From the NCBI GenBank assembly GCA_963971285.1, contig OZ020258.1, positions 3,968,001 through 4,032,000 on the forward strand: a DNA stretch of 64,000 nt, in the 5' to 3' direction. The translations under genes were made by a program, and so were the position numbers. Every line of letters begins with the position of its first letter. The first letter of the stretch is position 1. The notes beneath the pieces were generated by a model, which made no database searches, was not told where the DNA came from, and worked only from the letters and a program-made list of their open reading frames with translations. Origin of the DNA: Astropecten irregularis (Eukaryota; Echinodermata; Asteroidea; Paxillosida; Astropectinidae). Shown here in pieces: positions 1,890 to 23,905 of the stretch.

Positions 1890-1985
1890 GGTGTCGATCC
1901 CGGGGATGGGAGGATATACCCCGCCCCCTATATTTGAGGGGGGGGGGGTGACGTATATTATCACCCCCTCCCAATATTTTGGAGG
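1890..1985 (+). repeat. G/C-homopolymer repeat, copy 1
   Basis: Contains GTGTCGATCCCGGGG, then GGATATACCCC and a long G run followed by ATTATCACCCCC. An inverted copy lies at 23803-23905 next to gene C. The pair marks the far end of the inverted A/C segmental duplication, or is an independent short repeat. Confidence 0.6.
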
Positions 1986-1989
1986 TTAA

Positions 1990-3500
1990 TGTCATTTAAT
2001 ATCGACACAATATCTGAAGTACCAACAAAATAATGAAGAAATAGAAATATTATTGTTTTTTAAATGCTCCAAAATGCGACTTTTCAACTCTTGTTTTTGT
2101 TTGTTAAGCACCTCGTGCGGGGTCCTCCAACAACCTCCCCCCACTCGGTCGCTTCGAACCCTCGCATAGAATACCAAATCACCAATCATCCCCCCAATCA
2201 TGAAAAGAAATCGACACCGATGCTTTCAAGGTCACAGATCGAGTTTTTACCAACCAAAATGGTAGAAACCATGAGGGTTGAAACAGACATCCTTGCATGT
2301 ACGTGCTGTATGTGCAGAGTTTGCTGTTAGTGTTTGTTGTATCATGGAGGTAGAAATACTATTTCTACCTCCATGGTTGTACATTATAGCATGGAGGTAG
2401 AAATGATTATAGCATGTAGTTCAATGTAGACTTAGCGTCATGCAACGGCTCTATATGAAAAAAAGACCCAGTAAATATTATGGAGCTGCATGAAGCCGAT
2501 GGCTGGAGAGCGTGAATTGTAATTAATTTGGATGGAGGTGTGATGCCCACAATGGCCGCGTTTGAATAACGGTCGCCCTAGTGATAATTATATCGATAAT
2601 AATTTGCACAGACGTGACAAAATAAAAGCACAGCATATAGTCCGCTATTGGCGTCGTTTATGCTGCGCTATAGCCGCAAATTGTTGCGCATCAATGCCCA
2701 TATTTTTATTCTTTGAAAGGCCAAATTAATGCCCAAACGTTCTGCAAGGAGGCAACATTTAAATTGCGGTAAATATAGGGCTGACAAGGGGGTTCTACGA
2801 CTGTTCAAGTGTACGACTGTTTCATGTTTCTCAGATGCAGTAGGCCCCTAACTATACAATACAGGGGCGGATCTAGCTTTCAGGAAACGAAAGGGGGGGG
2901 GGGATGACAATCAAAAGTGTAATTTCGATGAAATTAAGTCCCAATGTCAGCAATACTTTTTTATCCCTGGAATTGGAGTCATCCTCGCTAATTTGCACAT
3001 CAAAAATCGCTGTAAATTGTTGTTTTCCCATAATATTTGCATTGTTGAAATTAAAGCCGTGAAATATGATGATGAACATGCAATTATCGGTGATTGTCTG
3101 TAACCTAGATTATATTTTGCAATCATGAAGAAGGTGGGTCTAGAAAAGAAAATGATCGACGGACTTTTAAAGGCAAGACTGAATTTGGGCACGGCCTCGA
3201 TTCTTCGTTTACAAAATTGAAGATTTTTGTCGAGATTGTTGTCTAATTAGCCATGGTAAAAAAACAACAACAAACAAACAAACAAACAACCACAGGTGTG
3301 GAAAATGGACTAAATTTAGCTGATATGAATTATTTTAATTGGTAGGCCTATGCGGTTGAACCGGGGGCCGGATGCAACGCCCATCTCTATATCCGACACT
3401 GCCATTATCATATGGTTGGTCTATAGGCCTAGCATTTTTGCTATGCTTTGCTCCCGTATAGAGCCGCTTGCAGGAAAACCGATGGGAAATAGGAAGAAAC
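1990..3500. other. Intergenic sequence, no gene seen
   Basis: No credible exons. It contains a small direct repeat of the words CATGGAGGTAGAAAT and TTTCTACCTCCATG around 2343-2403, a G run near 2892 and an (AAAC)n run near 3268-3290. About 3505-3592 is similar, in inverted orientation, to 23655-23757. Confidence 0.5.
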
Positions 3501-3618
3501 GGTTGGTAAATATCGACAGACAATGCCATATGTTGTGCCGTAATCAAAGCAATTTCTTCATTTATTCCTCTATTAAAACATTTTCAGTTCATTATAGAAT
3601 CAGTGCTGGATTTCACCA

Positions 3619-3742
3619 AACACTAAGATTGATCTTAAGATGAGTTTTCAGAACCGCCATAGTGATTTGTATTGTTAAATCACACTTACTTTGCTAAGCA
3701 ACTAGGATTGCCCATGACTTAAGATCAGTCTTAGTGCTTAGA
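3619..3742. mobile_element. Short palindromic MITE (TIR CACTAAGATTGATCTTAAG)
   Basis: The sequence at 3621-3639 is nearly the reverse complement of 3718-3736 (CTTAAGATCAGTCTTAGTG). It encloses about 80 bp with no coding potential, consistent with a non-autonomous DNA element of about 120 bp. Only one copy was seen here. Confidence 0.6.
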
Positions 3743-3784
3743 GAAACAGTATTACTGTGCCATTTTCGACTGGTTTCGATCGAA

Positions 3785-3980
3785 GATCTTTTAAAAGATT
3801 AAAAATAAAAGAGAAAAGACTTAAGAAACACTGTGGCTGTTTTTCACTGTTTTCTTAAAAAGTGGGCACCGTCAATGGGACTGAAATTTTCACAGATGAC
3901 TGTTACTGTATCTGTCTTGATATTTTTGCCTAAGGATCTGTATTTCTTTGATAAAAAACCAAAGTATGATATTAACTTTA
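3785..3980 (-). mobile_element. MITE family M1, partial copy
   Basis: Holds the half of M1 from the GATC palindrome to the ACCAAAGTATGATATTA terminus. The other half is missing. Confidence 0.75.
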
Positions 3981-4079: not shown

Positions 4080-4400
4080 GATGTCCCATTCGATGGACGC
4101 GGCACAATGACATGACACAATGCACTACAGATTGTCCACAATGTTCAAGTCCATGTGAAGTTCGGTGACGTCACCAATTATATCACGTGGGTCCATGTAT
4201 CCAATGCGATAAAGTGGTTTCTCAGACAAACACTGAATGTTACACTCAGCAGAGCCTCGTTGTGCCATTATGAGTTTAGCTGATTCGCTACAAAATTGAA
4301 CGTTGCTTTTGTTACAAAATTCAGCAGTGAGAGCAAAAACAGGCCATAAAATATTAAAGAAATATAAAGGATATAGCAGTGCTTTCAAAGCCTGAATATT
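4080..4400 (-). promoter_or_regulatory. Conserved 3' flank of gene A with CRE and E-box
   Basis: Contains the perfect palindrome GGTGACGTCACC near 4164-4175, followed about 10 bp later by ATCACGTGGG. The whole block is homologous to the 3' flanks of gene B (about 12720-13250) and gene C (about 22400-22640). TGACGTCA is the CREB/ATF consensus and CACGTG is a bHLH E-box. Function is an inference: it could be an enhancer, transcribed 3' UTR, or simply part of the duplicated unit. Confidence 0.5.
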
Positions 4401-4440
4401 TGCAATAGTGGTTAATTATAACGAGAATGTTTCAAATATG

Positions 4441-5300
4441 GCCCTTTTGTATGGAGGACGAAAAGTGGCCATCTGTTTTTCTGCTCTCAGAGTAGCAAAA
4501 AAGCAGATTTTACGTTTTTGTTAGATGCAATTTTCCACTTTTCTACTTATTTGCTACCTCAAAAGCAGAATTTATTTTTGTAGAAACTAATTTTCTGCTT
4601 TTCTGTTACCGGGAAAGCAGATCTTAAATCGGTGGCCGAAAAGTTGCCATCGGCTTTTCTGCCTTCATAAAGAGAACCACGCCCTCCTCCTACTAGCGCT
4701 GAACCGCATCTCAAAGAATAATTTATATTAGCATAATTAATTAATCATCTAGCCATCATCCAATAGACAGCCTACATGATCGGGAAATCGTTCATATGAA
4801 TAATAGGGTGGACCATCGTTATTATTGGTTTCCACAGCGATCGTCTTCAATGGGAGACTTTTGAGAACCGGTCTTCAAGTCAACAGCGCATGCGCACGCA
4901 ATTGTGAGCATGCGCGCGTTGTTTTGCGCCTGCGCTGTTGTGCGTGCGCGTGCGCTGTTGACTTGAAGACCGGTTCTCAAATTAAAGTCTCCCATTCACA
5001 GGAAAGGAAACGGTAGTAACCCCTAGCCCTCTTTACCGTCAGCGCAACAGGAAGGCGCGGCCCTTTTTAATATGAAGGCAGAAAAGCCGATGGCCACTTT
5101 TAGGCCGCCGAATTAAGATCTGCTTTTCCGGTAGCAGAAAAGCAGAAAAATTAGTTTCTACAAACGTTTGATATGCTTTTAAAGTAGCAAAAAAGAAGAA
5201 AAGTGGAAAATTGCATCTTACCAAAACGCAAAATCTGCTTTTTTGCTACTCTGAGAGCAGAAAAACATATGGCCACTTTTCGTCCTCCATACTTTTGGCT
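4441..5300. mobile_element. Foldback element with about 260-bp inverted arms
   Basis: The left arm (about 4441-4702) and right arm (about 5038-5300) are imperfect reverse complements along most of their length. Both carry AGCAGAAAAGC-type words and end at GTATGGAGGACG and CGTCCTCCATAC. The central part holds another palindromic element (4848-4998). There is no transposase frame. It sits just downstream of gene A's stop codon. Confidence 0.75.
4848..4998. mobile_element. MITE family M6 (TIR GAGAACCGGTCTTCAAGTC), copy 1
   Basis: Starts AATGGGAGACTTTTGAGAAC and ends with the inverted equivalent ending in TCTCCCATT. The core is rich in CGCATGCGC. A second diverged copy is at 33057-33221. It lies within the loop of the foldback element, so it is probably a nested insertion. 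Confidence 0.75.
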
Positions 5301-5331: not shown

Positions 5332-8300
5332 CTATTTGCAGACATAGACAACGACGAGGTATTTTGGAATACCGAAACACGGATCTCCACCGAACATGTC
5401 GTTGGTGGCAGGGATCCTACAGGTATGCTTCTCCTGACATTCTCGTCGTACCTCGGAGAGCGACTCGGTCTCATTACCGCAAGGCTGGGCTCTCTCCGGC
5501 CCCAAATTTTTCATGCAGTGGTTGGTGCCGCTTTCTCGTCCGTAGAGCGCCCACTGGACATCAATCACCTCGCTGCTGCTGGCACAGGCGATGGAGAAAT
5601 TCGAACCCTCGCAAACAAGTTTTACTGCAAACAAAATACAATGTACAAGGAAAGAATGTTTTCAATTTTTGTTAAAAAGGATTTACTAGTACAAACAACT
5701 GCGATGAATTAAATTCATTTGTTAATTATTTTATTCTTTATGGGTGCATTCGTTTAGCTCCCCCCGGGTCGACACCAGTCAACCTCGTCCCCTTTCTCTC
5801 GCTTGTTTTGCGCAGTAAAACATGACCATTCCCAGTAAGGGCTGACCCGTGTTAACTAAACGAATGCACCTTATGAGTGGGGTCCCCTTCAACCTTTTTG
5901 GTTGTGCCACGCCAAGAGGAATTATGGCTCTTTTTTGTTACTTGCCAAATGGCAAATGTAACCTCTGCAATGTCTAATAAAAAGGATTTGAGACCACCGA
6001 TCATCAAAGAAGCTCTATAGGCCTTGAAGGAGAGAAGCTTGGCGGTACAATACATCCGATGTACTAAGATTTCAGAGATCCCCCCCACATTTTTTCTGTT
6101 TGTTGTTTTATGTCTCTTAGTGCTGACAAACTGCTGGGGCCAATTTCGTAGAGCTGCTTAAGCGCCAAAATTTGCTTAAGCACCAAAAACCTTCGTAAAT
6201 AAAACTAATATAAAGTCAATATGCAAGTCAGAGCACCTTGATGTGAATATTATGCTCAGCAAACGATGGTCGAATACAAGTCATAAGCAGTAAACATTAC
6301 ATGAAAATTTGGTTTGCAATCCTGTTTGATCGAGGAAGACTTTTCTTGCTTGAGCAAATTTTGCGGTTAAGCAGCTCTATGAAATTGGGCAATGGTCATT
6401 ATAAGGCCTAAAAAAATGTGTTGTGTTGCCCTCAGCGAACGACCGTAAAATGCCAAAACTTTGGGTCGGGATTTTGCTCAGAGTCCTAAAGTATAAAAAC
6501 TCACCATCAGTTTTGACAGAAAATTTCAGATTTAGCAGTAAAAAAATCGTGTCTCTTCAAAACAACCCAAGACCGTTGATTTATAAGCCCTGGTGACCAG
6601 ACATCCTATATTTATTCTTAAATGTTTGAGAGTCGGCCCCCCCCAAAAAAAAAAAAAATAATAAATACATAAAATAAAATAAAATCGACCGACCGACCCA
6701 AAATTTTAATTTGTCCACTTGAGGGCAACACAACAAATTTCTTTTCGGCCTAAGGTTAATGTGTATCTATAGATTGGGGATTTAAAGAAAATGGTCTTAA
6801 GCGATTCCTACTCACCGGATGTGCAATTCAGTAACTCGGCAATCTTTTCGGGATCTTCAGTGGCGACGGACGAGTTCAGGTACGTTGGCAGGAAAGATCG
6901 CCCCGGTGCCTTCCGGTTGACTCCGCCAAGGCGTATCTTCCTGCAGCTGCACGGGTCTTCGTACGGCAGAACCCATCGCATCTTCCCGCTCTGGTCTGGC
7001 TCTTGGCTCATGTAACATTTTCTGGTCCCAAGGCCACCAACAGATCCAAATACTGTTAAAATTAGATGGGAAAAAAAGCAAACCAGCGTTTACCAAGAGA
7101 AAACTATAAACTAAAGCCTGGCAACGTACCGCAATCAATGATGAAATTTGTTTAAAAGGTAATATCATACTTTGGTTTTTATCAAAGAAATACAGATTCA
7201 TGGGCAAAAATATCAAGACAGATACAGTAACAGTCATCTGTGAAAATGTCAGTCCCATACGGTGCCCACTTTGTGAGAAAACCGTGAAAAACAGCCACAG
7301 TATTTCTTAAGTAGTTTCTCTTTTATTTTTATGGATAAATACACCATTTCAGGCGGAAACAATTTAACGGTATGTTTCTACCACCACCATCTTCATACCC
7401 TGTAAGTTATACGTAAATCTGTGAACTTTTCTGTTTTGGTCTCTTAACAAAGTATGATACTACTTTTAAAGGGTTCATGCAGTGCTTTTTTTCAGTCAGG
7501 TTATTTTATTGCCTTCAGATAGAGAATATACTGACAGATAATGAATGGCAAGTCTTATTTTGGTTCCAAACCAGCATTTGGTTTTCGTTTTAATGGCTTT
7601 GCAAAATGGGAGATTTGTATGCATACTCATGTGCATGGAGAACCAACAGCAAACTAGCTTTTACCATGAGAATAAAGAACTGTAGCCTTCATAACCACAG
7701 TCAGATGAAATTTCTTAGAGGTAGTATCATACTTTGGTAAGAAACCAAAACAGAAATGTTCACAGATTTACAGGGTAAGATGATAGTGGTAGAAACATGC
7801 CGTTAAGAATACAGCTGCCCGTCTGATAACTCACAGCAGAAAAAGCGATCATATTACTCCTGTTCTTAGATCAATGCATTGGTTGCCCATAGAATCACGA
7901 ATTTTGTTTAAAATATTCTTGCTCATGTTTCATTGTATCCATGGTACTGCCCCTGACTATAATGTTTCTCTTGTATACAGCAATATACCCCTATTAGGCA
8001 ACTTCGCTCATCTGAATCCATTTCATATGTTGTACTAAAAGTTAAAACCAAATGGGGGGATCGCTCATTTGTTCATGCGGGTACATTATGTTGGAATAAA
8101 TTGCCATTAGACAATAGACATTCGGGAAACTCATAATATTGTTACTTTCAAGGTTAAACTAAAGACATATCTTTTTCATAATGCATATAAGTAGTTTGTT
8201 CTGTTGTATATTGTTCAGACATTATTCTCTATTTTGTATTGCAGTATTTCCATTTTCACTTCTGTCAAGCGCTTTGAGCACTTCTGTGAATATTGCGCTA

Positions 8301-8663
8301 CATAAGTAACCATTATTATTATTATTATTATTTGTTAATTTCTTTTCGAAAATAAAAGCGCATCGTTATAGATTAACTGTTTTTCTTTTGTAGGTGTACT
8401 GATATTATTCTCTTCGTTTAAAATGAAGTCCGCTATTATTTTATTTTGAAAGAGGAGCCCTTAAATTCCTTGAAGATTTGACAGTTTTTGACACTCTCTC
8501 CACAAGAGGAAATCGGAGCTTGCATCAATTCAACCGCATCACCGATCTTCCAAAGTGAAATTTCATTTAGCAGTTCCAACGCCTCCACCAAATCCTTAAG
8601 AAAAACTTCACAGCATTACTTACCCCAGAGGAGTAGAAACAGACGCCAAGGCATCTTGTCCAT
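5332..8663 (-). CDS. Gene A: secreted SUEL-type (rhamnose-binding) lectin, 189 aa
   Basis: Three coding exons: 8624-8663, 6816-7052 and 5332-5624, with GT-AG borders and both introns in phase 1; the joined frame is 570 nt. Exon 1 encodes a signal peptide starting MDKMPWRLFLLLWG. Exon 2 encodes a 79-residue linker containing CYMSQEPDQSG, with four cysteines, that I do not recognise. Exon 3 encodes one SUEL/Gal_Lectin domain (about residues 93-189) with the family's YGR motif (120-122), DPC motif (173-175) and KYL (180-182). An N-glycosylation sequon, NET, is visible. Proteins of this family bind L-rhamnose or D-galactose and are used in egg, coelomic and immune fluids; export from the cell is inferred from the signal peptide. 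The start was chosen as the first in-frame Met before the hydrophobic run; a second Met lies three codons on. Paralogues are B and C. Confidence 0.85.
5742..5870. mobile_element. MITE family M4 (TIR GGGTGCATTCGTTTAGCT), copy 1
   Basis: About 130 bp, ending in the inverted terminus AACGAATGCACC. The core has GTCGACACC and GCTTGTTTTGCGC. It is inverted relative to copies at 10532 and 19003. It lies in the second intron of gene A. Confidence 0.8.
6136..6390. mobile_element. MITE family M3, diverged copy in gene A intron 2
   Basis: Ends match the M3 terminus GGGGCCAATTTC...GAAATTGG(G)C and the inner TTAAGC words are present. The copy is more diverged than those at 12.1, 14.4, 23.9 and 61.6 kb. 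Confidence 0.7.
6415..6750. mobile_element. MITE family M7 (TIR TTGTTGTGTTGCCCTC), copy 1
   Basis: Both ends carry the word GTTGTGTTGCCCTC in opposite orientations, next to CGACCGACCGACCC. A homologous element in the opposite orientation is at 29576-29876. A poly-C/poly-A stretch and an (AAAT)n-like run sit near 6640-6680. It lies in the second intron of gene A. Confidence 0.75.
7152..7470 (+). mobile_element. MITE family M1 copy in gene A intron 1
   Basis: Starts AAAGGTAATATCATACTT and ends AAAGTATGATACTACTTTTA. The central GATC palindrome has been deleted. A further fragment of the same family lies at about 7717-7807. Confidence 0.8.
7850..8335 (+). mobile_element. LINE 3' fragment (CR1/L2-like reverse-transcriptase tail)
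   Basis: The plus-strand reading from about 7856 gives DHITPVLRSMHWLPIESRI followed by LFKIFLLMFHCIHGTAPDY. This is the typical C-terminal end of CR1/L2/Crack-type non-LTR reverse transcriptases. A frame break follows, and the sequence ends in an (ATT)n tail near 8310-8335. It is a 5'-truncated dead copy inside the first intron of gene A, in the opposite orientation to the gene. The clade assignment is approximate. Confidence 0.75.
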
Positions 8664-8699: not shown

Positions 8700-9960
8700 T
8701 TTTTTCCCAGCAGAATAATAAAAAAGATAAAATGTTTGCGGTGACACCATGTAATCTCTTCTGTGAGAGTGTGTGGTTCTGAGAAGAACCTGTGGTATTA
8801 TCTCGACGTTCCGAACAGTGTGCTCTGTTCGTCTTCAAGAGAGAATGTATAATACCAAAATGGTACCACTATTGCTACTGAAAACAATTAAGGTGATGTA
8901 TATGTGTGCGCATGCATACAGTTGATTTATTTTGTTGGGTGGTCCCTACTATTGTTTGATGTATGCCTATTGTTTGATTGAATCGTCCTTGACATTGTCA
9001 CGAACCCGCTCGTTCAAAATGTATCGGACTACAGTGATGATAATCGTGTTCGCTTGCTTGCATGCTTTCAGACTTCAGCAAATTGTTTGGGCAAAGAAAA
9101 TCTCTTTTTTTTTCGTTAAAAAGGGAACATAATTATCTGATGGTTCCTTAGTTTGCATTTAATGCGAGACAGGTTGTTACCGACATCTCAAAGAAAGGGC
9201 CACATTGTGATGTTCGAAATTATCCACCTTTTGGTTTTTTACAATTCAATTTTGTGTTTGTATGAACTTGTTATTACTTTGTGATATCTGTAGAGAAATG
9301 GGTGTTGCATGTCGCCCCTTTTCTTTATATAAGTCCACGCCCCTAAGGTATAGCCTTTTCACCCTAAGCCAGAGCTCACATACAGAAAGTCTACGGATTA
9401 TGCCGCATTTATTTTGAACGAGAGTTATAATATAATAATGGCTATACGAAAGCTGGTTCTCCGTTTTCATTTCAGTGGTTTTTATGTTTTATTTGACTTG
9501 AAAATTCACCGCCCCTCTTTTCTTTTTGAAAAGAGCGATGTTCCCTTTTACTGATGTGTATTAAGCAACAGCCATTAAATATTAAAAACGCATTGCAATC
9601 ATTTGAGAATTTGAGAATTAATATTCAAGCTAAAATGCGTCTATATTGAATTCGTGGAGTAGAATTTTCTATGATCTCCTTTCGCGTACAATGGATGATG
9701 AAGTATAATTATTGAATTCATATTGTACTGTCAGGGTGTGGCAGTGAAGCTCATTTATAATTGTGCCTGAATATAACAGATACGATGGCACTTTTATTAT
9801 TAATTTTGAAGTGCAGTTAAAGGAGGAATTTGAAAAGTGCATATAATGCAAATACATTAGCTTCATTTTATAATGACATTTGAAATATTTTCAACAAACC
9901 ACGAGGACTGTCAAAAACCCTCTGCTTTTAATAAAATGTTTAATTGTTTGGTCTTTCAGT
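8700..9960. other. Upstream region of gene A
   Basis: No coding exon is supported. 8976-9000 (TGATTGAATCGTC) resembles 16959-16985 upstream of gene B, so part of the 5' flank was duplicated with the gene. I see no clear TATA box. Confidence 0.4.
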
Positions 9961-10052
9961 GCCCTACATTCACAAAAAGATGACTGACATTTTTGTACCA
10001 TCTCTTTAATTTTCTCTCTTTGTCAACAAGTTGGATGAAAGCATTGTGTCAC

Positions 10053-10401
10053 TTAAAGGTTGTATCATACTTTGGTAAGAGACCAAAACAGAAATGTTCA
10101 CAGATTTACGTATAACTTACATGGTATGAAGATGGTGCTGGTAGAAACCTACCGTTAAAATGTTTCCGACTGAAATGATGTATTTATCCAGAAATTAGTA
10201 AAACAACGACTGAAAATCTTTTTGATCTTTTAAAAGATAAAAAATAAGAGAGAAAAGACTTGTGGCCGTTTTTCACGATTTTCTCAAAAAGTCGGCACCG
10301 TATGGACATGAAATTTTCACAGATGACTGTTACTGTATCTGTCTTGATATTTTTGCCCATGAATTTGTACTTCTTTAACCAAAGTATGATACTACCTTTA
10401 A
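10053..10401 (-). mobile_element. MITE family M1, full copy
   Basis: Both AAAGGTTGTATCATACTT-type termini are present, with the full interior including AAAATCTTTTTGATCTTTTA. It is inserted into the segmental repeat exactly between ACTT and AACCTTCTTTT, so the empty site can be seen at 18861. Confidence 0.85.
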
Positions 10402-10531
10402 CCTTCTTTTCTAAAGACGCAGAAAAAAACCGTCAGTATTCATTACGCATGATTCGGTTTGACACAATGAAGCCCCTTAAACCTTTTACATAAATCTTTA
10501 CATCAAGTGCTCTCCACAAGTCACTTATAAT

Positions 10532-10659
10532 GGGTGCATTCGTTTAGCTAACACGGGTCAGCCCTTACTGGGAATGGTCATGATATACAGCACAAAACAA
10601 GCGAGAGAATGGAAAGAGGTTGACTGGTGTCGACCCGGGGGAGCTAAACGAATGCACCC
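10532..10659. mobile_element. MITE family M4, copy 2
   Basis: Near-perfect terminal inverted repeat GGGTGCATTCGTTTAGCT. The core has TGGTGTCGACCCGGGG. The flanks match those of the 19003 copy, so the two copies arose by segmental duplication, not by separate insertion. Confidence 0.85.
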
Positions 10660-10998
10660 AATGGAGCATTCATTTATTTCATTGCAGTACTCAGATCTGT
10701 TCATTGCTTGTATTTTCCCTCGTCATTTTATAACAACATTAGCTGATGACTCTGTAGCAATTAAACTGCCACTCAAAGATGTATTCAATATTGGGTGTGA
10801 CTTACAGCATATCGCCTTTGCGTAACATGTTGCCCACAAACTGCAGCGTATATTCGATATCACAGCTTTGGAAGGAAACATTGTAAGGGGATTTAAGCCT
10901 TAGGACTGAAAGGATGTTTCGACTTTTCTAGTGATACAACTACATGTGATAAATGCAGTATATCTGTTATAGACTATGATATAATTCTTGCCCGTGCC

Positions 10999-11336: not shown

Positions 11337-11538
11337 TATACACAATCTCTACGGTTGGTTGGAAAAAGGAAAGATCGTTGATTAAGGTGATGCGTTGGTG
11401 CACTGATGATGTGGCAACTTACGCAGAATCCACAAACGAAACGTTTCGAATAACTGTCTCATTTTTAACTGCATGGTTTCGTTTGAACGAAGTGATCTCT
11501 GTAGTGTCAGTTTAATCGTTATTTTCGTTTGGGAACCT

Positions 11539-12342: not shown

Positions 12343-12479
12343 TGCATTTGTGATGTAAGCAGGGCTGCCATGTATCATAAGTCCTACAATAATAGTAAGT
12401 TTGGAAGCGTTTCTTGAAATCGACCCTTGTATTTTGGATGTCATGGTCGACATCTCAGCATGCATATTGCATAATCCAA

Positions 12480-13250
12480 TGCCAATTTTATATTCTGAAT
12501 ATTTTGGCAGTATTATACATGCAAGCAGTGTATCGTTGGCCTATCCATGACCACGGACAAGAAAAATATCAAATTTAATCATAGGCCTATGCAAATTCAG
12601 TGCAGATAAAATGAAAGCTTTGCAGTCGATGAAACGAGCGAAGTGTGCATAATAATATTCAATCCGGTTTATTTTCTATTCAATCTCTTTCATTTGGGGC
12701 AACAATACATTTTGACAAAGAATATTTTGAACCGGTAAAATCATGAAGCATTTTAAATGCACCGAAATATATGATGTCCCATCATTTTGAAGATTGATGG
12801 ACGCGACTATTGTATAGATGACACAATGCACTAATGTCCTCATTGTTCGAATCTATAGGGCCTTTTCGAAACGGAGGCTTAGGCTCAGGCTCAGGCTCCA
12901 GCTCTGACATCCATATGCTGGAAATATAGGTTGTGGTTTTTCATTGAAGCTGAAGCTCTGTTTTCCTTTTCAAACCAGAGAATCTACCTCCGAACCGCAG
13001 CCAAAAGTCTCTACTTTGATGCCCGTTGTGTTCGAATGGATTCACGAAATTGAGCCGGAGCCTGAAACGGAGCCTGAACCTCCATTTCGAAAACGCCCAA
13101 AGTAAAGATCGGCGACGTCACCAATTACATCACGTGGGTCCATGTATACAATGCTGCTAATGCCATGAAGTGGTTTCTCATGCAAAGCCTCGTTATATGC
13201 CATTATGAGTTTGACTTATAGTTAGTGCCAATTCGCTATACTAAATTTAA
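12480..13250 (-). promoter_or_regulatory. 3' flank of gene B with the conserved CRE/E-box block
   Basis: 13110-13145 contains GCGACGTCACCAATTACATC followed by ACGTGGGTCC, matching the gene A and C flanks, although the outer half of the CRE has changed from GGTG to GGCG. Further homology with the gene C flank runs down to about 12490, including the words AATCCGGTTT and ATGCAAATTCAGTGCA. A palindromic MITE (12858-13098) interrupts this copy. Confidence 0.5.
12858..13098. mobile_element. Palindromic MITE with TIR GGGCCTTTTCGAAA
   Basis: The ends GGGCCTTTTCGAAACGGAGG and CCTCCATTTCGAAAACGCCC are inverted copies. The next inner parts (AGGCTCAGGCTC and GAGCCTGAA) also pair. It is absent from the homologous flanks of genes A and C, so it inserted after the duplication. 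Confidence 0.75.
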
Positions 13251-13672: not shown

Positions 13673-14423
13673 TAGTTACCAATATTGTACATGTACTCTA
13701 AATGAATGGGCATAACAATGCTTCAATAGCCTGAATAGGCCTATTTGCAACAATCACATTATGTCACGGTGCTTTGGGAGAATGTTTCAAAATTGCCGGT
13801 ATTGGCTTTGTACATCTGTACTTCAGATAAGCCGCAATTTGACTATTTGCAGATGTAGAGAACGACGAGGTACTTTGGAATACCATCACACAGTTCACCG
13901 AACATGTCGTAGGTGACAGGGATCTTACAGGTCTGCTTCCCCTGGCATTCTCCTCGTACCTTGGAGAGCGACTCGGTCTCATCACCGCAAGGCTGGGCTC
14001 TCTCCGGCCCCAACTTTTGCATGCAGCGGTTGGTGCCACTTTCTCGTCCGTAGAGCGCCCACTGCACATCAATCGCCTCGCTACTGGCACAGCTCAAACT
14101 CAAGCCATCCCACTCACAGGCAAGTTTGCGTATCTTTTCTGCAAACAACAAATACAAAGAAAGAAAGCTCCCATGAAAATGATTTACTCATAAAAACTTA
14201 ATCAAATAAAAGTCAATATACAAGTAATAAACTGCTGCAAACTGCTCATCAGCCAAAATGAGCAGATTATAGTCATGACAATTTTTTTGTGGGATCCTCT
14301 TCAACCTATTTTTGTTGTGCCATACAGAGAGGAATTATTACTCTTTTCTTTACAGCTCGACAACATCAGAGAAAACGGACTTAGACCAACGATCATCGAA
14401 GAATTTAAAAGCTGTATAGGCCA

Positions 14424-14664: not shown

Positions 14665-14804
14665 AGAAGAGGAGAGGCTTTGTAGGACATCCGATGTGCT
14701 GAGACTTTAGAGCTGTTTTCTGCCCTTTTTTGCGTTTGTTGGGGTGTTTGTTTGTCGTTTTTGTTCGTTTGTCTCTTTTCCCACAAACACTGCATGGTCA
14801 TTGT

Positions 14805-15184
14805 GAGGTTATAGGTATAATACAGGATTTGTAAAAAATACCCAAACAGAAATGGTCACAGATTTACGTAAATCATTCAGGATATGAAGATTTATGGTAT
14901 AGAAACATTCGGTTAAACATTCTGAAATGGTGTATTTATCCAGAAATTAGTCAAACAACGACCGAAAACTGTTTTGATCTCGAGGTAAGATCAAACCCAT
15001 TTCTTTATGTTATATTATAAGAAAGATTGAATCGGGTTTTCGCTATTTTATCGCGACTCAGAATGTCAGATTGAGCTCAAAGTTTCACATGTTTTTCATT
15101 TCATACATGTTTTACCAGACAAAGTATGGATGCTTTTTGCAGACCTAATTTACCAATTGATGTACATGTATTATAACTTTAAAG
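14805..15184 (-). mobile_element. MITE family M2 copy in gene B intron 2
   Basis: One end reads GGTATAATACAGGATTTGTA. The interior first matches M1 (CAGATTTACG, GGATATGAAGAT), then the M2-specific half (TCGGGTTTTCGCTATTTT, TTGAGCTCAAA). The terminus is near GTATTATAACTTTAA. Confidence 0.75.
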
Positions 15185-15577
15185 CGTATAAGGTCTTTGG
15201 TGTGGGCGGCTAGAAATGGTCTTAAGCGATTCCTATACTCACCGCGTGTGCAATTCAGCAACTCAGCTATCTTTACGGGATCATCAGTGACGATGATCGA
15301 GTCCAGGTACCTGGGCAGGAACGCTCGCTCGGGTGCCTGTAGGTTGACTCAGCCCGGCCGTATCTCGGTGCAGCTACACGGGTCGCGGTACGGCAGAACC
15401 CATCGCATCTTCCCGCTCTGGTCTGGCTCTTGGCCCATGTAACATTTTCTGGTCCCAAGGCCACCAACAGATCCAAATACTGTTAAAATTAGATGGAAAC
15501 AACGAACACACCAGCGTTTACCAAGAGAAAACTATAAACTATAGCCTTCACAACGTACAGCAATCAAATGAAATTTG

Positions 15578-15942
15578 TTAAAGGTAGTATCATACTTTGG
15601 TTTTTGTCAAAGAAATAAAGATTCGTGGGCAACAATATCAAGGAAGATACAGTAAAAGTAATATGTTAACATTTCAGTCCCATACGTTGCCCACTTTTTG
15701 AGAAAACAGCGAAAAACGGCCACAGCATTTCTTAAGTGTTTCCTCTTTTATTTTTGATCTTTTAAAAGATCAAAAAGATTTTCGGTTGATGTTTTACTAA
15801 TTTCTGGATAAATACACCATCTCAGGCGGAAACATTTTAACGGTAGGTTTCTACCAGCACCATCTTCATACCATGTAAGCTATACGTAAATCTGTGAACA
15901 TTTCTGTTTTGGTCTCTTACCAAAGTGTGATACTACCTTTAA
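15578..15942 (+). mobile_element. MITE family M1, full copy in gene B intron 1
   Basis: Termini TTAAAGGTAGTATCATACTT and AAGTGTGATACTACCTTTAA, with the central palindrome GATCTTTTAAAAGATC intact. A similar position is occupied by a copy in gene A intron 1 (7152-7470), so this insertion may predate the A/B duplication. Confidence 0.85.
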
Positions 15943-16606
15943 GGCTCACCCTCATTGGAAGTCAATCAGAAAAACCAATTAAAAACGCACCTCTAGATTA
16001 ACTTTCTTTCTTTTTAAAATTATCCTCTTATTTAAGACGAGGCCAAACGATCATTTTGGGGAAGACCAAATGAGTGGCTCTTTAAATTCTTGAAGACGCG
16101 TCACTCACTCTCCACACAGGAAAAAGAGAGACAGACATTTGTGAATGAAGCTTACATCCGGTGCCAAACTTTTTATAAGAAATCAATGAAAACGCCCACA
16201 GAATATTCTTAAAATCTTTTTGGTTTTTGGTCATTGGTTTTACTGCAAGGTTTTACTTGCATCCACTCAACCGCATTACCGATAAATTCCCTCCTTGACT
16301 TCCTAAGGAAATTTCATTCGGCAGTTCCAACTTTTCCCTCCAAATCCTACAAAATACCCAAGCCCATTTGGATGTCCATCCAACACTTACCCCATAGCAG
16401 TAGATACAAACGCCAAGGCATCTTGTCCAGACAACTCCAGCCTTATCTTCTGTTTGTGGTCTAGTGGTTTATCATCTGCGTTTATCATAGTTTTACCGAA
16501 TGTGATATCACTATATTGCTATAGGGAAAACTATGGTGAGTGCGCACGCATACATCTGACTATCGTTTTCATTCCTTACTCCTCCCTCTTATACCACAGT
16601 AGCAAC

Positions 16607-16961
16607 TTAAAGGTAATATCATACTTTGTTTTTTTGTCGAAGAAATTCAGATTCATGGGCAAACATATCAAGGAAGATACAGTAACAGTCATCTGTGAAA
16701 ATTTCAGTCCTATACGGTGCCCACTTTTTTAAAGAAAATCGTGGAAAACGGCCACAGTATTTCTTAAGTCTTTTCTCTTTTATTTTTGATCTTAAAGATT
16801 TTCGGTCGTTCTTTGACTAATTTCTGGATAAGTACACCATTTAGGCGGAAACATTGTAACGGTATGTTTCTAACACCACCATCTTCATACCCTGTAAGTT
16901 AGACGTAAATCTGTGAACATTTCTGTTTTGGTTTCTTACCAAAGTATGATACTACCTTTAA
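16607..16961 (+). mobile_element. MITE family M1, full copy upstream of gene B
   Basis: Termini TTAAAGGTAATATCATACTT and AAAGTATGATACTACCTTTA. Part of the central palindrome is lost. Confidence 0.85.
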
Positions 16962-18084
16962 TTGAATCGTCATTGAAATTAATACCACGAGCCTTCTTGG
17001 TCCAGTTTGTATAATAAATGATATTCAGAATGCATTGCGCTTTGTCAACAACTCTTGGACGAACCTTTTAATAACATGTGTCACTTAACCTTCTTTTCTA
17101 AAGACTGACAGGAAAACAATACCCGTCATTGTTGCCTGCTTTAGTTTGACACACTTACTTGCATGAGATTCCCTTAAAGGTTTGTATCTGGGTAACTCAA
17201 TTTAAAAAAAAATATGACCAAATCTGACCAAGTTGGCGTATTGAATGCAACAGGCCTTTTGCAGCAGACAATTTCTCTTACATGGGCCATTATGTGCTCT
17301 GGCTGATTTACCTCTGCATTTCAATTTGCTTTCAAGTGTTACCTCCAATGTTTGATCTAAGGTGGTTTGTGTTTTTGGGATGGGAGGGAGGGGCTGGGGA
17401 CGTGTGCCGGGCCCTTTGCAGCAGAAAAGTCCATGGGTAATTGCATGGGCCATTCCATACTTGCGTGTTGTACCTGTACTGTTCATTGGTTTCAAGTGGT
17501 AATGTATACCTGTTCGTTTGGGGGGTCCCCATGGGGCACATGCAGAAGGGGGTACCCGGCAGACGTCTATATCTGTTCGTATCTATATCGTATTTTTTTC
17601 TTTAGTGGGGGGGGGCCGTATTTTTCGACTGCCTCGGAAATTTGGGAGTTTTTCTAATTATTTCTTTTTAATTGGCCATTTTGCGTGGGAGCCTATGGGA
17701 AATTATTTACTGGTCTGCACTGAAAAAAATGCTCACGCGCTTTAGCAATGGTCACATGCACAAACCTATGCTAGGACACTAGGAACTTGACCGCATTTTA
17801 CTGACTACGCCAAACATAATCAAGGACCATTTCATGCCACAAAAGATATTGGCCCACGCAAACTCTACGGGTTTCCCTGTAAGCGTAACGGGAACAGTCG
17901 TTTGGCATAGTCAGTGAAATGCGGTCAAGTTTCCAGTCTTCTTAGCATGGTTTGCGCACGGGCTCATTGCTTAAGCGCGTGGGGAGTGAAATTGTAATTT
18001 TAAGACTAAAACAGGGCCAAGTTACAAAGGATATCGCCGATAAAATACTTGAAGAACTCTCTGAAGTGCTGTATGGATTATACA
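16962..18084. other. Intergenic region between divergent genes B and C, left part
   Basis: No exons supported. 17040-17160 is a copy of the segmental repeat seen at 10.4 and 18.8 kb. 17250-17470 has repeated CATGGGCCATT words. A palindromic MITE is at 17778-17936. Confidence 0.45.
17778..17936. mobile_element. Palindromic MITE with TIR AGGAACTTGACCGCAT
   Basis: ACTAGGAACTTGACCGCATT at the left end pairs with AATGCGGTCAAGTTTCCAGT at the right. Next inward, GACTACGCCAAAC pairs with GTTTGGCATAGTC. About 160 bp, non-coding. Confidence 0.75.
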
Positions 18085-18790
18085 TGTAGTATCATACTTT
18101 GGTTTTTGTCAAAGAAATTCAGATTCATGGGCAAACGTATCAAGGAAGATACAGTAACAGTCATCTGCGAAATTTTCAGTCCTATACCGCGGTGCCCACT
18201 TTTGAGAAAACAGTGAGAAACGCCCACAGTATATTCTTAAAGGGAGCTGTAGGATTTGCAAGGTCTCAGAGTTTGAGACAGACAATGGACTCAACAGTTT
18301 GTAAACAGTGCAAACAGTCACCATGGGAAATCTTGGTTCATCAGATGCTGGGTTTTTCAAGGAAATCAAGATTTAGTGTCTTTTCCAAAGATCGTTTGTC
18401 CGAACGATTTTTGGAACAAACATAAAGTAAGCTATTCTTTATGAAAAATCGAGTCGGGTTTTCGGTATTTTCTCGTGACTCAGATGTCCGATTGAGCTCA
18501 AATGTTCACAGGTTTATTATTTCATGTACATTTTTGATCAGGCAAAGTATGAGTGCTGTCCTGTGACCTTTACCAACTTGGATTAAAATCTTTTCACCGT
18601 TATTTCTGATCTTTAAAAGATCAACATTGTTTTGGTCATTGTTTTTTTTTTTACTCAAATACAGCATTTCAGTTAGGAAAGTTGCAACCTTTTTTTCTAC
18701 CATTACCATCTTAATATACTGTAAGTTATGGGTAAATCTGTGAAGATTTCTGTTTCGTTTACCAAAGTATGATAGCATATATACCTTTAA
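18085..18790 (+). mobile_element. Chimeric M1/M2 MITE block
   Basis: 18085-18240 is the left half of M1. About 18410-18590 is the M2-specific half (TCGGGTTTTCGGTATTTTCT, GATTGAGCTCAAA). 18595-18790 is the right half of M1 ending AAAGTATGATAGCATATATA. About 18243-18410 is unassigned sequence. Nested insertion or recombination between families would explain the order. Confidence 0.65.
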
Positions 18791-18829
18791 ACCAATTAAA
18801 GAATTTCTTTAATTTCATCTCTTTGTAAA

Positions 18830-19490
18830 CATCTCTTGGATGAAAGCTCAATGACATGTGTCACTTAACCTTCTTTTCTAAAGACGCAGAAAAACAATGC
18901 CCGGCAGTATTCATTATGCATGATTTGGTTTGACACACTGAAGCCACTTAAAACTTTTAAAGAAATCTTAACTTCAAGTGATCCCCATAAATCACTTATA
19001 ATGGGTGCATTCGTTTAGCTAACACGGGTCAGCCCTTACTGGGAATGGTCGTGATATACTGCACAAAACAAGCGAGAGAATGGGGGGACGAAGTTGACTG
19101 GTGTCGACCCGGGGGAGCTAAACGAATACACTCAATGGAGCATTCATTTATTTCATTGCGATACTCAGATCTGTTCATTGCTTGTATTTTCCCTTGTCAT
19201 TGAATAACAACATATAGCCGACTCTGTAGAAATTAAACTGCCACTCAATGATCTAATTAATACCCATGACACTTGTTTTCAATGGTTATCTTCATATGGG
19301 CGGCGCATCACTCACAAAGGGCCCCTTCTATACTAAAAGGAATCTACACATCAAACGTTCCCCTCAAAGTCATTTGAACCATTCAGTATCCGCTCTTTTC
19401 ATTGTTTGCCTATTCCCCTCCTGCTTTTATAACAACGCTATAGTCGAACCTGTAGCAATTTAAGTGCCACTCAAAGGTGTAATCAGTGAC
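18830..19490. repeat. Segmental repeat upstream of gene C
   Basis: Colinear with 10020-10810 minus the M1 insertion, including the embedded M4 element (19003-19132). 19300-19490 is a second tandem copy of its distal part (TCATTGTTTGCCTATTCCCC, TAGCAATTTAAGTGCCACTC). The orientation is the same as upstream of minus-strand gene A although gene C is plus, so the block was not simply inverted with the gene. Confidence 0.65.
19003..19132. mobile_element. MITE family M4, copy 3
   Basis: Termini GGGTGCATTCGTTTAGCT and GCTAAACGAATACACTC. The copy is within the duplicated block. Confidence 0.85.
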
Positions 19491-19777
19491 GGGTGTGACG
19501 CGTCTTTTTCCAAACTTGTGGGCTAATCACCCACAAATATCACTCCGCAGTTAGTGGCTGAACTACGGAGGAGTTTTAGTTGTCAGATGCATATTCTACA
19601 GCAAACTGGGAACAGACCGAATTTATGGTTTTGATATCAAATTGTTCTCCTCTATCGGACTGTTGAGTCACATTTTCTCCTTCTTGTAACAAAGAGACCA
19701 GAACACAAAATAATACGAACTCCATTAGGCCTATCTGTGGACATTTTTTCAAAGCCTTCGACCGGACTTATACATGC

Positions 19778-22154
19778 ATGATGTTTGAACGTCGTAAGAC
19801 CTACACAGTCATTGTGCTGATCATCTTGGGTAAGTTGAATTTATCCTTTGAATTTTATACAGGATTGGTAACATACCCAAACATAATGTTTACGTATAAC
19901 TTTCAGGGTATTATGAAGATGGTGGTTGTAGAAACATACCGTTAAATTATTTCTCCCTGAAACGGTGTATTTATCCAGAAATGATATAGTAAAACAAAGA
20001 CCGAAAACAGTTTTGATCTCGGGGTAAGATCAAATCCATTGATTATGTTAGTAAGAAAAATTGAGTTTGTTTCCCTATTTTCTCGTGACACAGATGTCCG
20101 ACTGAGAGCTCAAATGGTGTGTTATTGTATGTTCATGTTAGATTAGATCAAGTGTGAGTGCTGTAATTCTTTGACCATTACTAATCATGTATTATACCTT
20201 TAACGTCAGACCATCCTAAATTCGAGCAATAATTATGTTAATTAACAGAATTGGTTGCCTTGACTGTGTTTAAAGGTATAGAATCATATACTTTGGTAAG
20301 AAACCAAAACAGAAATGTTCACAGATTTACGAATAACTTACAGGGTATTAAGATGGTGGTGGTAGAAACATACCGGTACAAAACATTTCTCCGCCTGAAA
20401 TGGTGTACTTTATCCAGAAATAAGTCAAACAACGACCGAAAATCTTTATGATCTTTTAAAAGATCAAAAATAAAAGAGAAATTGACTTAAGAAATACTGT
20501 GGCTGGTTTTTCACTGTTTTCTCAAAAGCGTGCATCGTATGGGACTGAAATTTTCACAGATGACTGTTACTGTATCTGTCTTTATATTTTTGCCCATGAA
20601 TCTGTATTTCTTTGATAAAAATCAAAGTATGATATTACCTTTAACAAGAACACGCCCGAGTTGTTACGAGCAAAGACGTGAAATTGTGGTTATACGCATG
20701 AAGAACAGATCGACATCGCTGATTACCGAAAACTTTGAAGTTGATGAGAAAATGCCACTAATGTTCAAAAAGATACAGGCAACTATATTTTTTATACCTT
20801 TAGATCGTTTCTTGATTTATAAAAAAATGTCAGATTGTTATAAATATATATATTTTTCTCCTTTTGATTATAAAGGTCATTTGAGCCCCGTGATCGGCAA
20901 GGCGAAGACATGTTACTTCGGTCCTCCACCGAAGCCCGACCGCAACAATACTGATCCTCATCACTGGATGAAGCAAGCCATGCCGGACATACGCAAGAAT
21001 TGTCCGGGGAAAAACGCCGTTCAACCAGGTGAGTAACTGCAGCCAAAACTTGCAACATTTTATGCCAAGGTATACAGTACATTGGTAATACATGTATACC
21101 CAAACAGAAATGTTCTCAGATTTACGTATAACTTTTAGGATATGAAGATGGTGCTTGTAGAAACATACCGTAACAAATTTCCGGCTGAAATGCTGTATTT
21201 CACTCAGAAATGTGTAAAACAACGACCGAAAACAGTTTTGATATCTGAGTAAGATCAAAAGCGTTCTGTATGCTTTAGTCGGGTTGTCGATATTTTTTGT
21301 GTCTCGGATGTCCGATTGAGCTCAAATTTTCACAGGTTTATAATTTCATGTACATGCTGGATCAGACAGTGTGCATGGGTGCTGTTCTGTGACCATTATC
21401 AATCATGCGTTATACTTGTACGTGCAGCTCAAACGTATCGATTATAGAGAAATTCAACTGTTGAAATATCTGAAATGAGACTCGAACCAAACCCTTGTGA
21501 AGGAGAATTATTACTTGGACCCGTAAAGACCCCAGAAAAAAAACATAATCATTTCATGAGGCAACGAATATCATTGTTGAAGTTGATCTAAGTCTATACA
21601 TCTGAGAGTAACTTTTGTGTGAACGTATATGGTTTCAAATAAGAATATCATCATCAATGAAACAGCAATATTTCCTATCGTTCTGATATTTTTGCAATGC
21701 TGATATGCAAAGTTGCTTGTAGATAGGCACAATAAGCAACTAGGATGGGATCTTCTCTGTCCGTTTTTAATTTATTTTTTAAACATATTTTTGTCATTTT
21801 CTTTATTTGTCAACCATTTTCAAAAGTGGGAACTTTCTATCTTTGTATTTGTTTGCAGAAAAGATACGCAAACTTGCCTGTGAGTGGGATCACTTGAGTT
21901 TGAGCTGTGCCAGTAGCGAGGCGATTGATGTTCAGTGGGCGCTCTACGGACGAGAAGAAGGCGTCATGAACTGCACGGCCAGTGCGCCGGAGAAAGCCCA
22001 GGCTTGCGGTAATGAGACGGAGTCGCTCTCCAAGGTACGAGGAGAATGCCAGGGGAAGCAGACCTGTGAGATACATGTCACCGCCGACATGTTCGGTGAA
22101 GATCCGTGTCTAGGTATTCCAAAGTACCTCGTCGTGCTCTACATCTGCAAATAG
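19778..22154 (+). CDS. Gene C: secreted SUEL-type (rhamnose-binding) lectin, 166 aa
   Basis: Exons 19778-19829, 20876-21028 and 21859-22154, all with GT-AG borders and phase-1 introns; joined frame 501 nt. Exon 1 encodes a signal peptide (MMFERRKTYTVIVLIILG; the second Met could also start). Exon 2 is a 51-codon linker containing KTCYFGPPPKPD. It is shorter than in A and B, and only its CY and following proline-aspartate region look related to theirs. Exon 3 encodes one SUEL domain, about residues 69-166, with YGR (98-100), DPC (150-152), KYL (157-159) and sequons NCT and NET. It is closest in sequence to gene B's domain. It is on the opposite strand to A and B, divergent from B. Secretion and rhamnose/galactose binding are inferred from the family. 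Confidence 0.85.
19848..20203 (-). mobile_element. MITE family M2 copy in gene C intron 1
   Basis: Left end TTTATACAGGATTGGTAAC, right end TAATCATGTATTATACCTTT, with M2 interior words. Confidence 0.8.
20270..20643 (-). mobile_element. MITE family M1 copy in gene C intron 1
   Basis: Complete with both termini and the central GATCTTTTAAAAGATC. It lies head to tail with the M2 copy before it. A spurious open frame spans it and gene C exon 2. Confidence 0.85.
21070..21420 (-). mobile_element. MITE family M2 copy in gene C intron 2
   Basis: ATACAGTACATTGGTAATAC at the left end and CAATCATGCGTTATACTTG at the right end, with the M2 interior. Confidence 0.75.
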
Positions 22155-22159
22155 TCAAA

Positions 22160-22930
22160 TTGCGGCTTATCTGGAGTACAGATGTACAAAGCCAATACAG
22201 CGTAGCCTACCGGCAATTTTGATAAAATGATTATTGCAAATAATCAGGCTACTAAAGCTGCATTGCTATACTGCGTTCATTCAAACTTCATTTAAATATT
22301 TGTGATCATGAAGTGTATCCTAATTTTTATTCTCTTCTGCTGAATTTAATCCAAAAATCTAAGTTCAATTTTGTAGCGAATCGGTTCTAACTATTTAGTC
22401 ATAGGCTACCCATGATGGCATAATGAGGCTTTGCTGAGTGTAACATTCAGTGTTTGCATGAGAAACCACTTCATCGCATTAGCAGCATTGGATACATGGA
22501 CCCACGTGATACAATTGGTGACGTCACCGATCTTCACATAGACTTGAACATTGAGGACAGTAGTGCATTGTGTCATCTACGAGGGCCGCGGCCTTCGAAT
22601 GGGACATTATTTCTGTGCATTTCAAATGCTTAAATGACTTTATCAGTTTGTCAAATTGTTCCCCAAAGGCAAAAGTGTGAACAAAACATAAACCGGATTG
22701 AATATTATGGGAACTTTGCTCGTTTCACTCAACCTGCACAGCTTTCATTAATCAGTGCACTGAATTTGCATTATTATAAAATTATTGATGATTTTTCTTG
22801 TCTGTAGTTATATGAATAGGCTAACGATACATTGCTTGTATATAATACTTCAAAAATACACAGGAATACAAAATTGTCAGATATTTGGTTTATATGCTGC
22901 CGACCAGATCTCCCAAATGACATCCAAAAT
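22160..22930 (+). promoter_or_regulatory. 3' flank of gene C with conserved CRE/E-box
   Basis: 22504-22531 reads CACGTGATACAATTGGTGAC then GTCACCGA, i.e. the reverse complement of the block next to genes A and B. Homology with the B flank continues to about 22900. Its retention in all three copies could reflect constraint or just recent duplication. Confidence 0.5.
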
Positions 22931-23017
22931 ATACAGGTTCCCTAAACTATAAACATTCGTAGAATAGCGGGTAAACACAATGTACAGTTATCACAACTTC
23001 CAGACGAAACAACGCAG

Positions 23018-23330
23018 TTAAAAGTATTATCATACGTTGGTAAGAAACCAAAACAGAAATGCTCACAGATTTACGTATAACTTACAGGGTATGAAGATGG
23101 TGGTGGTAGAAACATACCGCTAAATATGTTCCGCCTGAAATGGTGTATTTATCCAGAAATTAGTAAAACAACGACCGAAAATCTTTTTGATCTTTAAAAA
23201 AGATCTAAATAAAAGATAAAAGTGGGCACCGTATGGGACTGAAATTTTCACAGATGACTGTTACTGTACATGTATCTGTCTTGATATTTTTGCCCATGAA
23301 TCTGCATTTCTTTGATAAAAACCAAAAATA
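23018..23330 (-). mobile_element. MITE family M1 copy
   Basis: Starts TTAAAAGTATTATCATACGT and contains the full interior. The right terminus stops at AAAACCAAAAATAG, so it is truncated. Confidence 0.75.
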
Positions 23331-23802
23331 GATAGTTATTCGATCGATAGTTCTTTCGTGGATTCTGTCATGTGGGTAGTTTCCACAATCGCCCCAATAA
23401 TTGCCCCCAAAGATTTACCTAAAGACCAATGATGTTTTTTTCAAACAAACCGTAGAGATTTTGTATTGGTTATGGCATAGCATTAACATGCTAAGCATGC
23501 ACAACAATCGCCAAATATTTGATGTCATTTGAGAGGCAAAGTCATCATCTCATCTAAACATTGATCATTAGCAGATCTACGACAGCGAATAATTATAATA
23601 AAGCTCCGGCCATGCTAATTTTAATACAATTTTACATAATAATTATGATCATTTCAGAATGTTTTAATAGAGGAATAAATGGAGAAATCGCTTTGATTAT
23701 GGCACAACATGGCATTGTTTGTCCATATTTACCAACAATAATTTACCAACCGTTTATTCATATCGCCTCCTATCGTTAACAAAAATAGAGTTGAAAAGTC
23801 GA

Positions 23803-23905
23803 AAAATTAGGGTGGGGGGGGGGGGGGTGATAATACACGCCATCCCCCACCTCAAATATCATCGGGGGATATACCCCCCCCCCCCCCCGGATCGACACTC
23901 ATGAA
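23803..23905 (-). repeat. G/C-homopolymer repeat, copy 2
   Basis: Inverted counterpart of 1890-1985: a G run, TGATAATACACGCCATCCCC, GGGGGATATACCCC, a C run, then GGATCGACACTCATGAACA. Confidence 0.6.

What the first reader, a model, noticed from the sequence alone, without database searches (positions are those of the whole stretch)
1890..23905. Lectin cluster built by segmental duplication, with A and C as inverted copies
Three SUEL genes share exon plan, intron phase and splice positions. The homology continues into non-coding 3' flanks in matching order: for gene A the stop codon, the CRE block (about 4.1-4.4 kb), 3505-3592, then 1890-1985; for gene C the stop codon, the CRE block (22.4-22.6 kb), 23655-23757, then 23803-23905, all inverted. 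Gene B shares at least the first kilobase. This gives a datable expansion of a recognition-protein family.
Basis: seen in the sequence. Interest (0 to 1): 0.75.

Follow-up and report, generated by a model that had tools for sequence, protein, structure and literature searches.

The report
Mosaic lectin genes, swapped front halves
Three neighbouring lectin genes, probably from an echinoderm, are not simple duplicates: their sugar-binding halves and their front halves have different histories, so the cluster is a patchwork of duplication and later swapping between copies.

Summary
Three SUEL-type lectin genes lie at 5.3-8.7 kb (A, minus), 13.8-16.4 kb (B, minus) and 19.8-22.2 kb (C, plus), with three exons and phase-1 introns each. 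A and C share inverted, ordered 3' flank: the "CRE block" and 3502-3582, the latter found nowhere else in the genome. The outermost block (1890-1985 / 23803-23905) is a dispersed repeat. A and C are not inverted copies of a whole gene: exon 3 plus 3' flank is shared, but exons 1-2 are of different types (I in A and B, II in C). The lectin-exon tree rejects A+C and A+B and joins B with C. B has an in-frame TGA and is probably dead. A stretch on contig C28 is colinear with window 9.75-22.3 kb. Across 11 related genes the two cap types mix on the lectin tree, with at least 4 changes. Exon-2 cores of B and C are much closer to a cluster 0.56 Mb away than their lectin exons are. Best reading: old duplications blurred by ectopic exchange; not datable here.

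The parts
8624..8654 (-). gene A exon 1 (signal-peptide-like), phase-1 end
   Evidence: GT donor; MPWRLFLLLW
6816..7052 (-). gene A exon 2, cap type I
   Evidence: 72% identical to the type I exon at C22:4565171-4565383
5332..5624 (-). gene A exon 3, SUEL lectin domain and stop
16391..16421 (-). gene B exon 1
15243..15479 (-). gene B exon 2, cap type I, in-frame TGA at 15349-15351
   Evidence: 1 TGA inside
13843..14138 (-). gene B exon 3, SUEL domain; DPC motif reads ELC
19778..19829 (+). gene C exon 1
20876..21028 (+). gene C exon 2, cap type II
21859..22154 (+). gene C exon 3, SUEL domain and stop
4081..4339 (-). 3' flank block of A ('CRE block')
12430..13186 (-). 3' flank block of B, split by an element with inverted ends at about 12857-13101
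22324..22931 (+). 3' flank block of C
3502..3582 (-). second 3' flank block of A; matches only C in the genome
23658..23736 (+). second 3' flank block of C
1890..1985 (.). dispersed repeat copy, not evidence for the duplication
23803..23905 (.). a diverged copy of the same repeat
7147..7470 (.). transposon-like repeat in A intron 1, about 96 bp upstream of exon 2
   Evidence: B has one at the matching site
15575..15942 (.). same repeat at the matching site in B intron 1
4449..5292 (.). element with about 240-bp inverted ends between A's stop codon and its CRE block
   Evidence: 4449-4688 vs 5292-5049, 87.7%
10398..10790 (+). block X1, direct repeat of X3, with a nested short transposon
18865..19262 (+). 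block X3 upstream of C, with the transposon at the identical site

Best explanation
The cluster holds three single-domain SUEL (rhamnose/galactose-type) lectin genes with signal-peptide-like first exons: two probably working (A, C) and one probably dead (B). Each gene is a front half (signal exon plus a Cys-containing cap exon of type I or II) and a back half (lectin exon plus 3' flank). It arose by old duplications: A/B in tandem, B/C head to head, and a block with B and C copied between two contigs. Afterwards exon-sized tracts were exchanged between copies by ectopic gene conversion or recombination, so that front and back halves no longer share one history. Shown: the sequence mosaic and the tree conflict. 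Inferred: that conversion rather than crossing-over did it, that the proteins are secreted and bind sugars, and that B is dead.
For: Lectin-exon tree of 11 genes: C with the C28 copy (H) 97/95, B joined to them 99/99, the five genes of the 4.54-4.57 Mb cluster (D) together 100/100. AU rejects type I as one group (p 1.45e-10), A+B (0.0044) and A+C (6e-5). Starred branches force at least 4 changes of cap type; 369 (type II) or 380 (type I) of 500 label shuffles are as low. Synonymous differences, exon 2 vs exon 3, same pairs: B-D71 1/32 vs 35/59 (p 2.7e-8); C-D52 4/28 vs 29/59 (p 0.002); H-D52 3/28 vs 28/59 (p 0.0007). All 7 tested pairs of B, C or H with D have p 0.012 or less (not independent of each other); the 7 tested pairs of A, F or G with D have p 0.07-0.85. 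Matches of B's exon 2 to four D exons lie within 15247-15452 and those of C's to two D exons at 20896-21012, that is inside the exons, with no match in the introns. A-B: a run of 109 columns with one mismatch (A 6961-7069), 0 of 20000 shuffles as long, 209 of 260 identical outside. C28:6841035-6846230 is colinear with window 9748-22287. X1 and X3 carry a transposon at the same site; the C28 X3 copy is a clean empty site.
Against: The exon-2 trees are short: type I still places A with B (96/98, A branch long), and type II does not place the D exons (51/10). A long A branch means that part of the B-D closeness may be fast change in A. For A-B and for C-H the two exons give the same synonymous distance (p 0.82 and 0.53), so nothing there calls for exchange. 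F-G is reversed, exon 2 more diverged than exon 3 (p 0.02). In X, columns alignable in all four copies favour old orthology (15) over exchange (6), and the C28 X1 copy lacks the stretch with the transposon site, so that argument rests on one empty site and on no precise excision. The B-D71 comparison has 46 codons, because D71's exon is interrupted. No expression, reads or related genomes were seen. That B is dead rests mainly on one TGA in an assembly.
Confidence: 0.7

Rival explanations
1. Plain segmental duplication: A and C are inverted copies of one gene with flanks, B a third copy, all ageing together.
For: Ordered inverted 3' homology of A and C, unique in the genome for 3502-3582; shared intron phases; A-B exons 2 and 3 equally diverged.
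Against: Exons 1-2 of A and C are of different types; AU rejects A+C in the lectin exon; the outermost block is a dispersed repeat.
Confidence: 0.12
2. Intron-mediated exon shuffling: symmetric phase 1-1 cap exons were inserted separately into lectin genes, without conversion.
For: Cap exons are phase 1-1 in A, B and C and, read by eye, in the 6 other type I loci and 1 other type II locus looked at; caps occur at 150 (type I) and 100 (type II) matched places in the genome.
Against: Homology to the D-cluster exons stays inside the exons with no similar intron, which recent whole-exon transfer does not predict; exon 1 appears to follow exon 2 in type, weakly for A and B.
Confidence: 0.12
3. No exchange: exon 2 cores look young because selection holds their nucleotides, while lectin exons diverge fast.
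For: Exon 2 type II has dN/dS of 0.05-0.70.
Against: The same exon has synonymous distances of 0.51-1.03 for G against the others, and type I 0.35-0.60 for A against D, so synonymous sites can change.
Confidence: 0.05
4. Assembly artefact: uncollapsed haplotypes.
For: One A-B patch of 109 columns is almost identical.
Against: Other non-repeat copies differ by about 7-30%, different elements are inserted in them, and a further colinear copy lies on another contig.
Confidence: 0.01

Closest known systems
SUEL / rhamnose-binding lectin family (Pfam PF02140); nearest solved chain 5h4s (L-rhamnose-binding lectin), then CSL2 and CSL3
   Same: Domain scores above the Pfam cut-off; eight cysteines; YGR, DPC and KYL motifs in A and C (the meaning of the motifs is recalled)
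   Different: One lectin domain per gene behind a cap exon; the three best solved lectins match with 2-3 stretches each
Cap type I / F5-8 type C (discoidin) genes of the same genome
   Same: The type I cap exon, phase 1-1, lies upstream of an F5/8 type C domain: 3 of 3 ORFs scanned, one each from 3 of 6 fetched loci
   Different: Here the cap sits on a SUEL domain; no match for either cap in Pfam or NCBIfam, and only weak chance-like ones in PDB sequences
SpTransformer (185/333) genes of sea urchins (PMC8634487, abstract start and passages seen)
   Same: Echinoderm gene clusters with small segmental duplications and a mosaic coding exon
   Different: I take the proteins to be unrelated (recalled, not compared); their duplications are edged by GA short tandem repeats; they are upregulated on immune challenge, which is untested here

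Membership tests
SUEL / rhamnose-binding lectin domain | Match above Pfam gathering score | tested here: met
   A 66.5, C 74.2 bits, cut-off 31.4; B lectin exon 65.6 bits in the genome scan
SUEL / rhamnose-binding lectin domain | Eight cysteines and YGR / DPC motifs (recalled) | tested here: met
   Alignment, read by eye: A and C have all; B keeps eight cysteines and YGR but reads ELC for DPC
SUEL / rhamnose-binding lectin domain | Binds L-rhamnose or D-galactose | not testable with these tools
   needs protein
Segmental duplication A/C, inverted | Ordered non-coding homology outside exons | tested here: met
   two blocks; the third cited block fails
Segmental duplication A/C, inverted | Whole-gene extent and sister relation | tested here: not met
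   exons 1-2 of different type; AU p 6e-5 against A+C
Tandem duplication A/B | Shared transposon at the same intron site | tested here: met
   about 96 bp from exon 2 in both; the left flank aligns well, the right flank weakly
Ectopic gene conversion | Tracts of discordant identity with sharp edges | tested here: met
Ectopic gene conversion | Distinguished from unequal crossing-over | tested here: inconclusive
   edges inside exons favour conversion; no species series
Conserved CRE enhancer in the 3' flank | Palindrome kept across copies | tested here: not met
   2 of 5 copies
Caps I and II as one domain family | Profile similarity | tested here: inconclusive
   hhalign: 21 columns, probability 16, E 0.0016, around CY.G..P and W
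Echinoderm genome | Mitochondrial code 9 (AAA=Asn, AGA=Ser) | tested here: met
   COX1 on contig C168 reads without stops and gives INMR and IYNV under table 9; tables 5, 13, 14, 24 and 33 also give no stop, and 14 also reads AAA as Asn; flatworms share code 9 (recalled)

The most novel reading that the evidence does not exclude
The genome keeps two alternative 5' gene halves (cap I, cap II) and a pool of SUEL lectin exons that are repeatedly re-paired by ectopic recombination over 0.6 Mb and between chromosomes. This would be a combinatorial germ-line way to vary a secreted recognition protein. The two caps would be undescribed extracellular modules, type I used on both SUEL and discoidin lectins.
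Probability: 0.3. Interest if true: 0.6.

Novelty: new variant of a known kind. Interest (0 to 1): 0.4.

Why it matters
It shows that a lectin gene count or a dated expansion in such a cluster can mislead: front and back halves of a gene can have separate histories. It also points to two short cap exons, at 150 and 100 matched places of one genome and without a Pfam or NCBIfam match, of which type I is joined to two unrelated sugar-binding domains. If the pairing is combinatorial, these recognition proteins vary by swapping halves as well as by point change.

Tried and rejected
Far block 1890-1985 as duplication evidence: rejected, dispersed repeat. CRE as a conserved regulatory site: rejected, 2 of 5 copies. 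Fold of the caps: type I model pLDDT 75, type II 65; type I Foldseek best E 2.8, 0 matches at 0.001; type II was not searched by fold. Profile searches of PDB sequences with both caps gave 2 matches each, E 0.03 or worse, which I take as chance; their names mean nothing here. The type II cap as part of a transposon: the one 1-kb stretch fetched shows the cap between AG and GT as a phase 1-1 exon and short ORFs only, of 108 codons or fewer, so not pursued. Whether caps I and II are distant relatives: open. Literature: 'rhamnose-binding lectin' with 'gene conversion' gave 0 papers; 'SUEL, lectin, echinoderm, gene duplication' gave 3, listing seen only; 'rhamnose-binding lectin, sea star, genome' gave 5, listing only; 'SUEL lectin domain' or 'exon shuffling' gave 994 with at least one term, 8 listed, listing only; gene conversion in echinoderm immune families gave 13, 10 listed, of which passages of PMC8634487 were read. 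Dating: not done, no clock. Related-species loci: not sought; the collections offered hold prokaryotes, viruses, phages, plasmids or metagenomes (the last at 0 scans here).

Full report
Setting. The window is C22:3968001-4032000 of a 475.7-Mb genome in 168 contigs. The mitochondrial COX1 on contig C168 reads cleanly under code 9, and AAA must be Asn in the stretches INMR and IYNV (their conservation is recalled), so the animal is most likely an echinoderm. The species is not known to me.

Gene models. A (minus) has exons 8624-8654, 6816-7052 and 5332-5624. B (minus) has 16391-16421, 15243-15479 and 13843-14138. C (plus) has 19778-19829, 20876-21028 and 21859-22154. All six introns are phase 1 with GT-AG borders. 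Exon 3 is a SUEL domain. B has an in-frame TGA in exon 2 (15349-15351) and reads ELC where A and C read DPC. Exon-3 dN/dS is 1.45 for B-C and 0.53 for C against its C28 copy, on few sites. B is probably a young pseudogene (inference).

The 3' flanks. Self-BLAST of the window gives A-C matches at 4081-4339 (77.4%, 288 columns) and 3502-3582 (91.4%, 81 columns), both inverted and in order after the stop codon. Genome-wide, the query 3490-3600 has 2 places, A and C. The CRE block has 6 matches: C itself, A, two pieces at B, and weak ones 3' of the SUEL exons at C22:11.18 Mb (F) and 13.84 Mb (G). A's spacing is stretched by an 844-bp element with inverted ends (4449-5292); B's block is split by a 245-bp one. 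The palindrome TGACGTCA is intact in A and C only (2 of 5 copies).

Two front halves. Exon 2 of A and B (type I) and of C (type II) differ in length and sequence; a profile comparison finds only a weak resemblance over 21 columns, so a distant relation is open. Searches of the whole genome gave 150 matched places for type I (218 candidates, 150 scored, so a lower bound) and 100 for type II (169 candidates, 150 scored) at E 0.001 or better. Comparing the listed places by eye, at least 12 loci have a cap hit within 5 kb upstream of a SUEL hit on the same strand: A, B, C; five at C22:4.546-4.575 Mb (D46, D52, D61, D71, D74); F; G; C28:6.845 Mb (H); and C28:6.908-6.913 Mb with several SUEL hits. 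The last was not read further; the tree uses the other 11. A type I cap at C22:4.541 Mb (D41) has no SUEL exon found near it. Elsewhere type I caps lie upstream of F5/8 type C domains: of 6 fetched loci I scanned one ORF from each of 3, and all 3 were positive. The caps tried have no match in Pfam or NCBIfam. Exon 1 appears to follow exon 2: A's and B's weakly match a type I gene of D (E 4e-5 and 6e-5), C's matches F, G and H.

Tree conflict. On the lectin exon (294 of 303 columns kept), the five D genes form one group (100/100) that mixes both caps. A, B, C, H, G and F form the other and mix them too. B joins C and H (99/99), and C and H pair (97/95). Starred branches force at least 4 changes of cap type, about the mean of shuffled labels (4.0 and 3.9). 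AU tests reject type I as a group (1.45e-10), A+B (0.0044) and A+C (6e-5). The exon-2 trees are weak: type I keeps A with B (96/98) with a long A branch; type II unites C and H (97/93) but does not place D (51/10).

Discordant distances. Of the pairs, 19 were compared between exons. For B, C or H against D genes, synonymous differences are few in exon 2 and many in exon 3: 7 of 7 pairs, p 2.7e-8 to 0.012, not independent. For A, F or G against D there is no clear difference (7 of 7, p 0.07-0.85). Of the other five pairs, A-B, C-H, C-G and C-F show no clear difference (p 0.07-1) and F-G is reversed (p 0.02). B and C match D only inside exon 2, not in the introns. A and B share a run of 109 columns with one mismatch in exon 2 and its border, against 209 of 260 identical around it; 0 of 20000 shuffles reach it. 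D71's type I exon appears to be interrupted by about 160 bp.

Block copy on another contig. C28:6841035-6846230 matches the window from 9748 to 22287 in order on one strand. It has gaps: window 10957-14078 is missing, joined at one point, and so is the part with B's exon 2. It holds an apparently intact C-like gene and a remnant of B. So the head-to-head B-C arrangement is probably older than this copy. In the window the direct repeats X1 (10398-10790) and X3 (18865-19262) are 89% alike and hold a short transposon at the same site. The C28 X3 copy has the clean empty site; its X1 copy lacks that stretch. One reading is that the insert was copied from one X to the other, though shared-site counts in the part alignable in all four favour old orthology (15 to 6).

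How it most likely works. Shown: three gene models, SUEL domains, mosaic histories. Inferred: signal peptide and secretion, sugar binding as in the family, and a cap that adds a partner-binding or oligomer-forming part. No expression or binding evidence was available.

Verdict. A date cannot be given from what I had. The mosaic is the more interesting part; small segmental duplications and mosaic exons in an echinoderm recognition family are known, for instance in SpTransformer clusters (PMC8634487, passages seen).

Noticed in passing
27138-27938 (+): A single open frame with a C-type lectin domain (PF00059, E 1.2e-19) and a PAN-like stretch just under its cut-off, 5 kb from gene C.
   Followed up: partly
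54816-55127 (+): Open frame containing [21 protein letters not shown], which looks like the start of a ROCK/NDR-type protein kinase (recalled); Pfam gave no kinase hit for the fragment.
   Followed up: no
741-1165, 7147-7470, 10049-10402, 15575-15942, 16605-16961, 20269-20644 and others: A repeat family of roughly 320-420 bp, many copies in the window and in most of the related lectin loci compared.
   Followed up: no
12098-12344, 14421-14666, 23922-24168, 61571-61818: A 246-bp repeat with about 47-bp inverted ends, four copies at 91-96%.
   Followed up: no
contig C131:32162-33484 of the same assembly: A COX1 gene with no stops under the standard code, beside the mitochondrial one on C168; perhaps a bacterial contig in the assembly.
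   Followed up: no
contig C11:12.56-12.71 Mb of the same assembly: A dense run of type I cap hits on one strand, many about 4-8 kb apart; the one stretch fetched has an F5/8 type C ORF downstream.
   Followed up: partly
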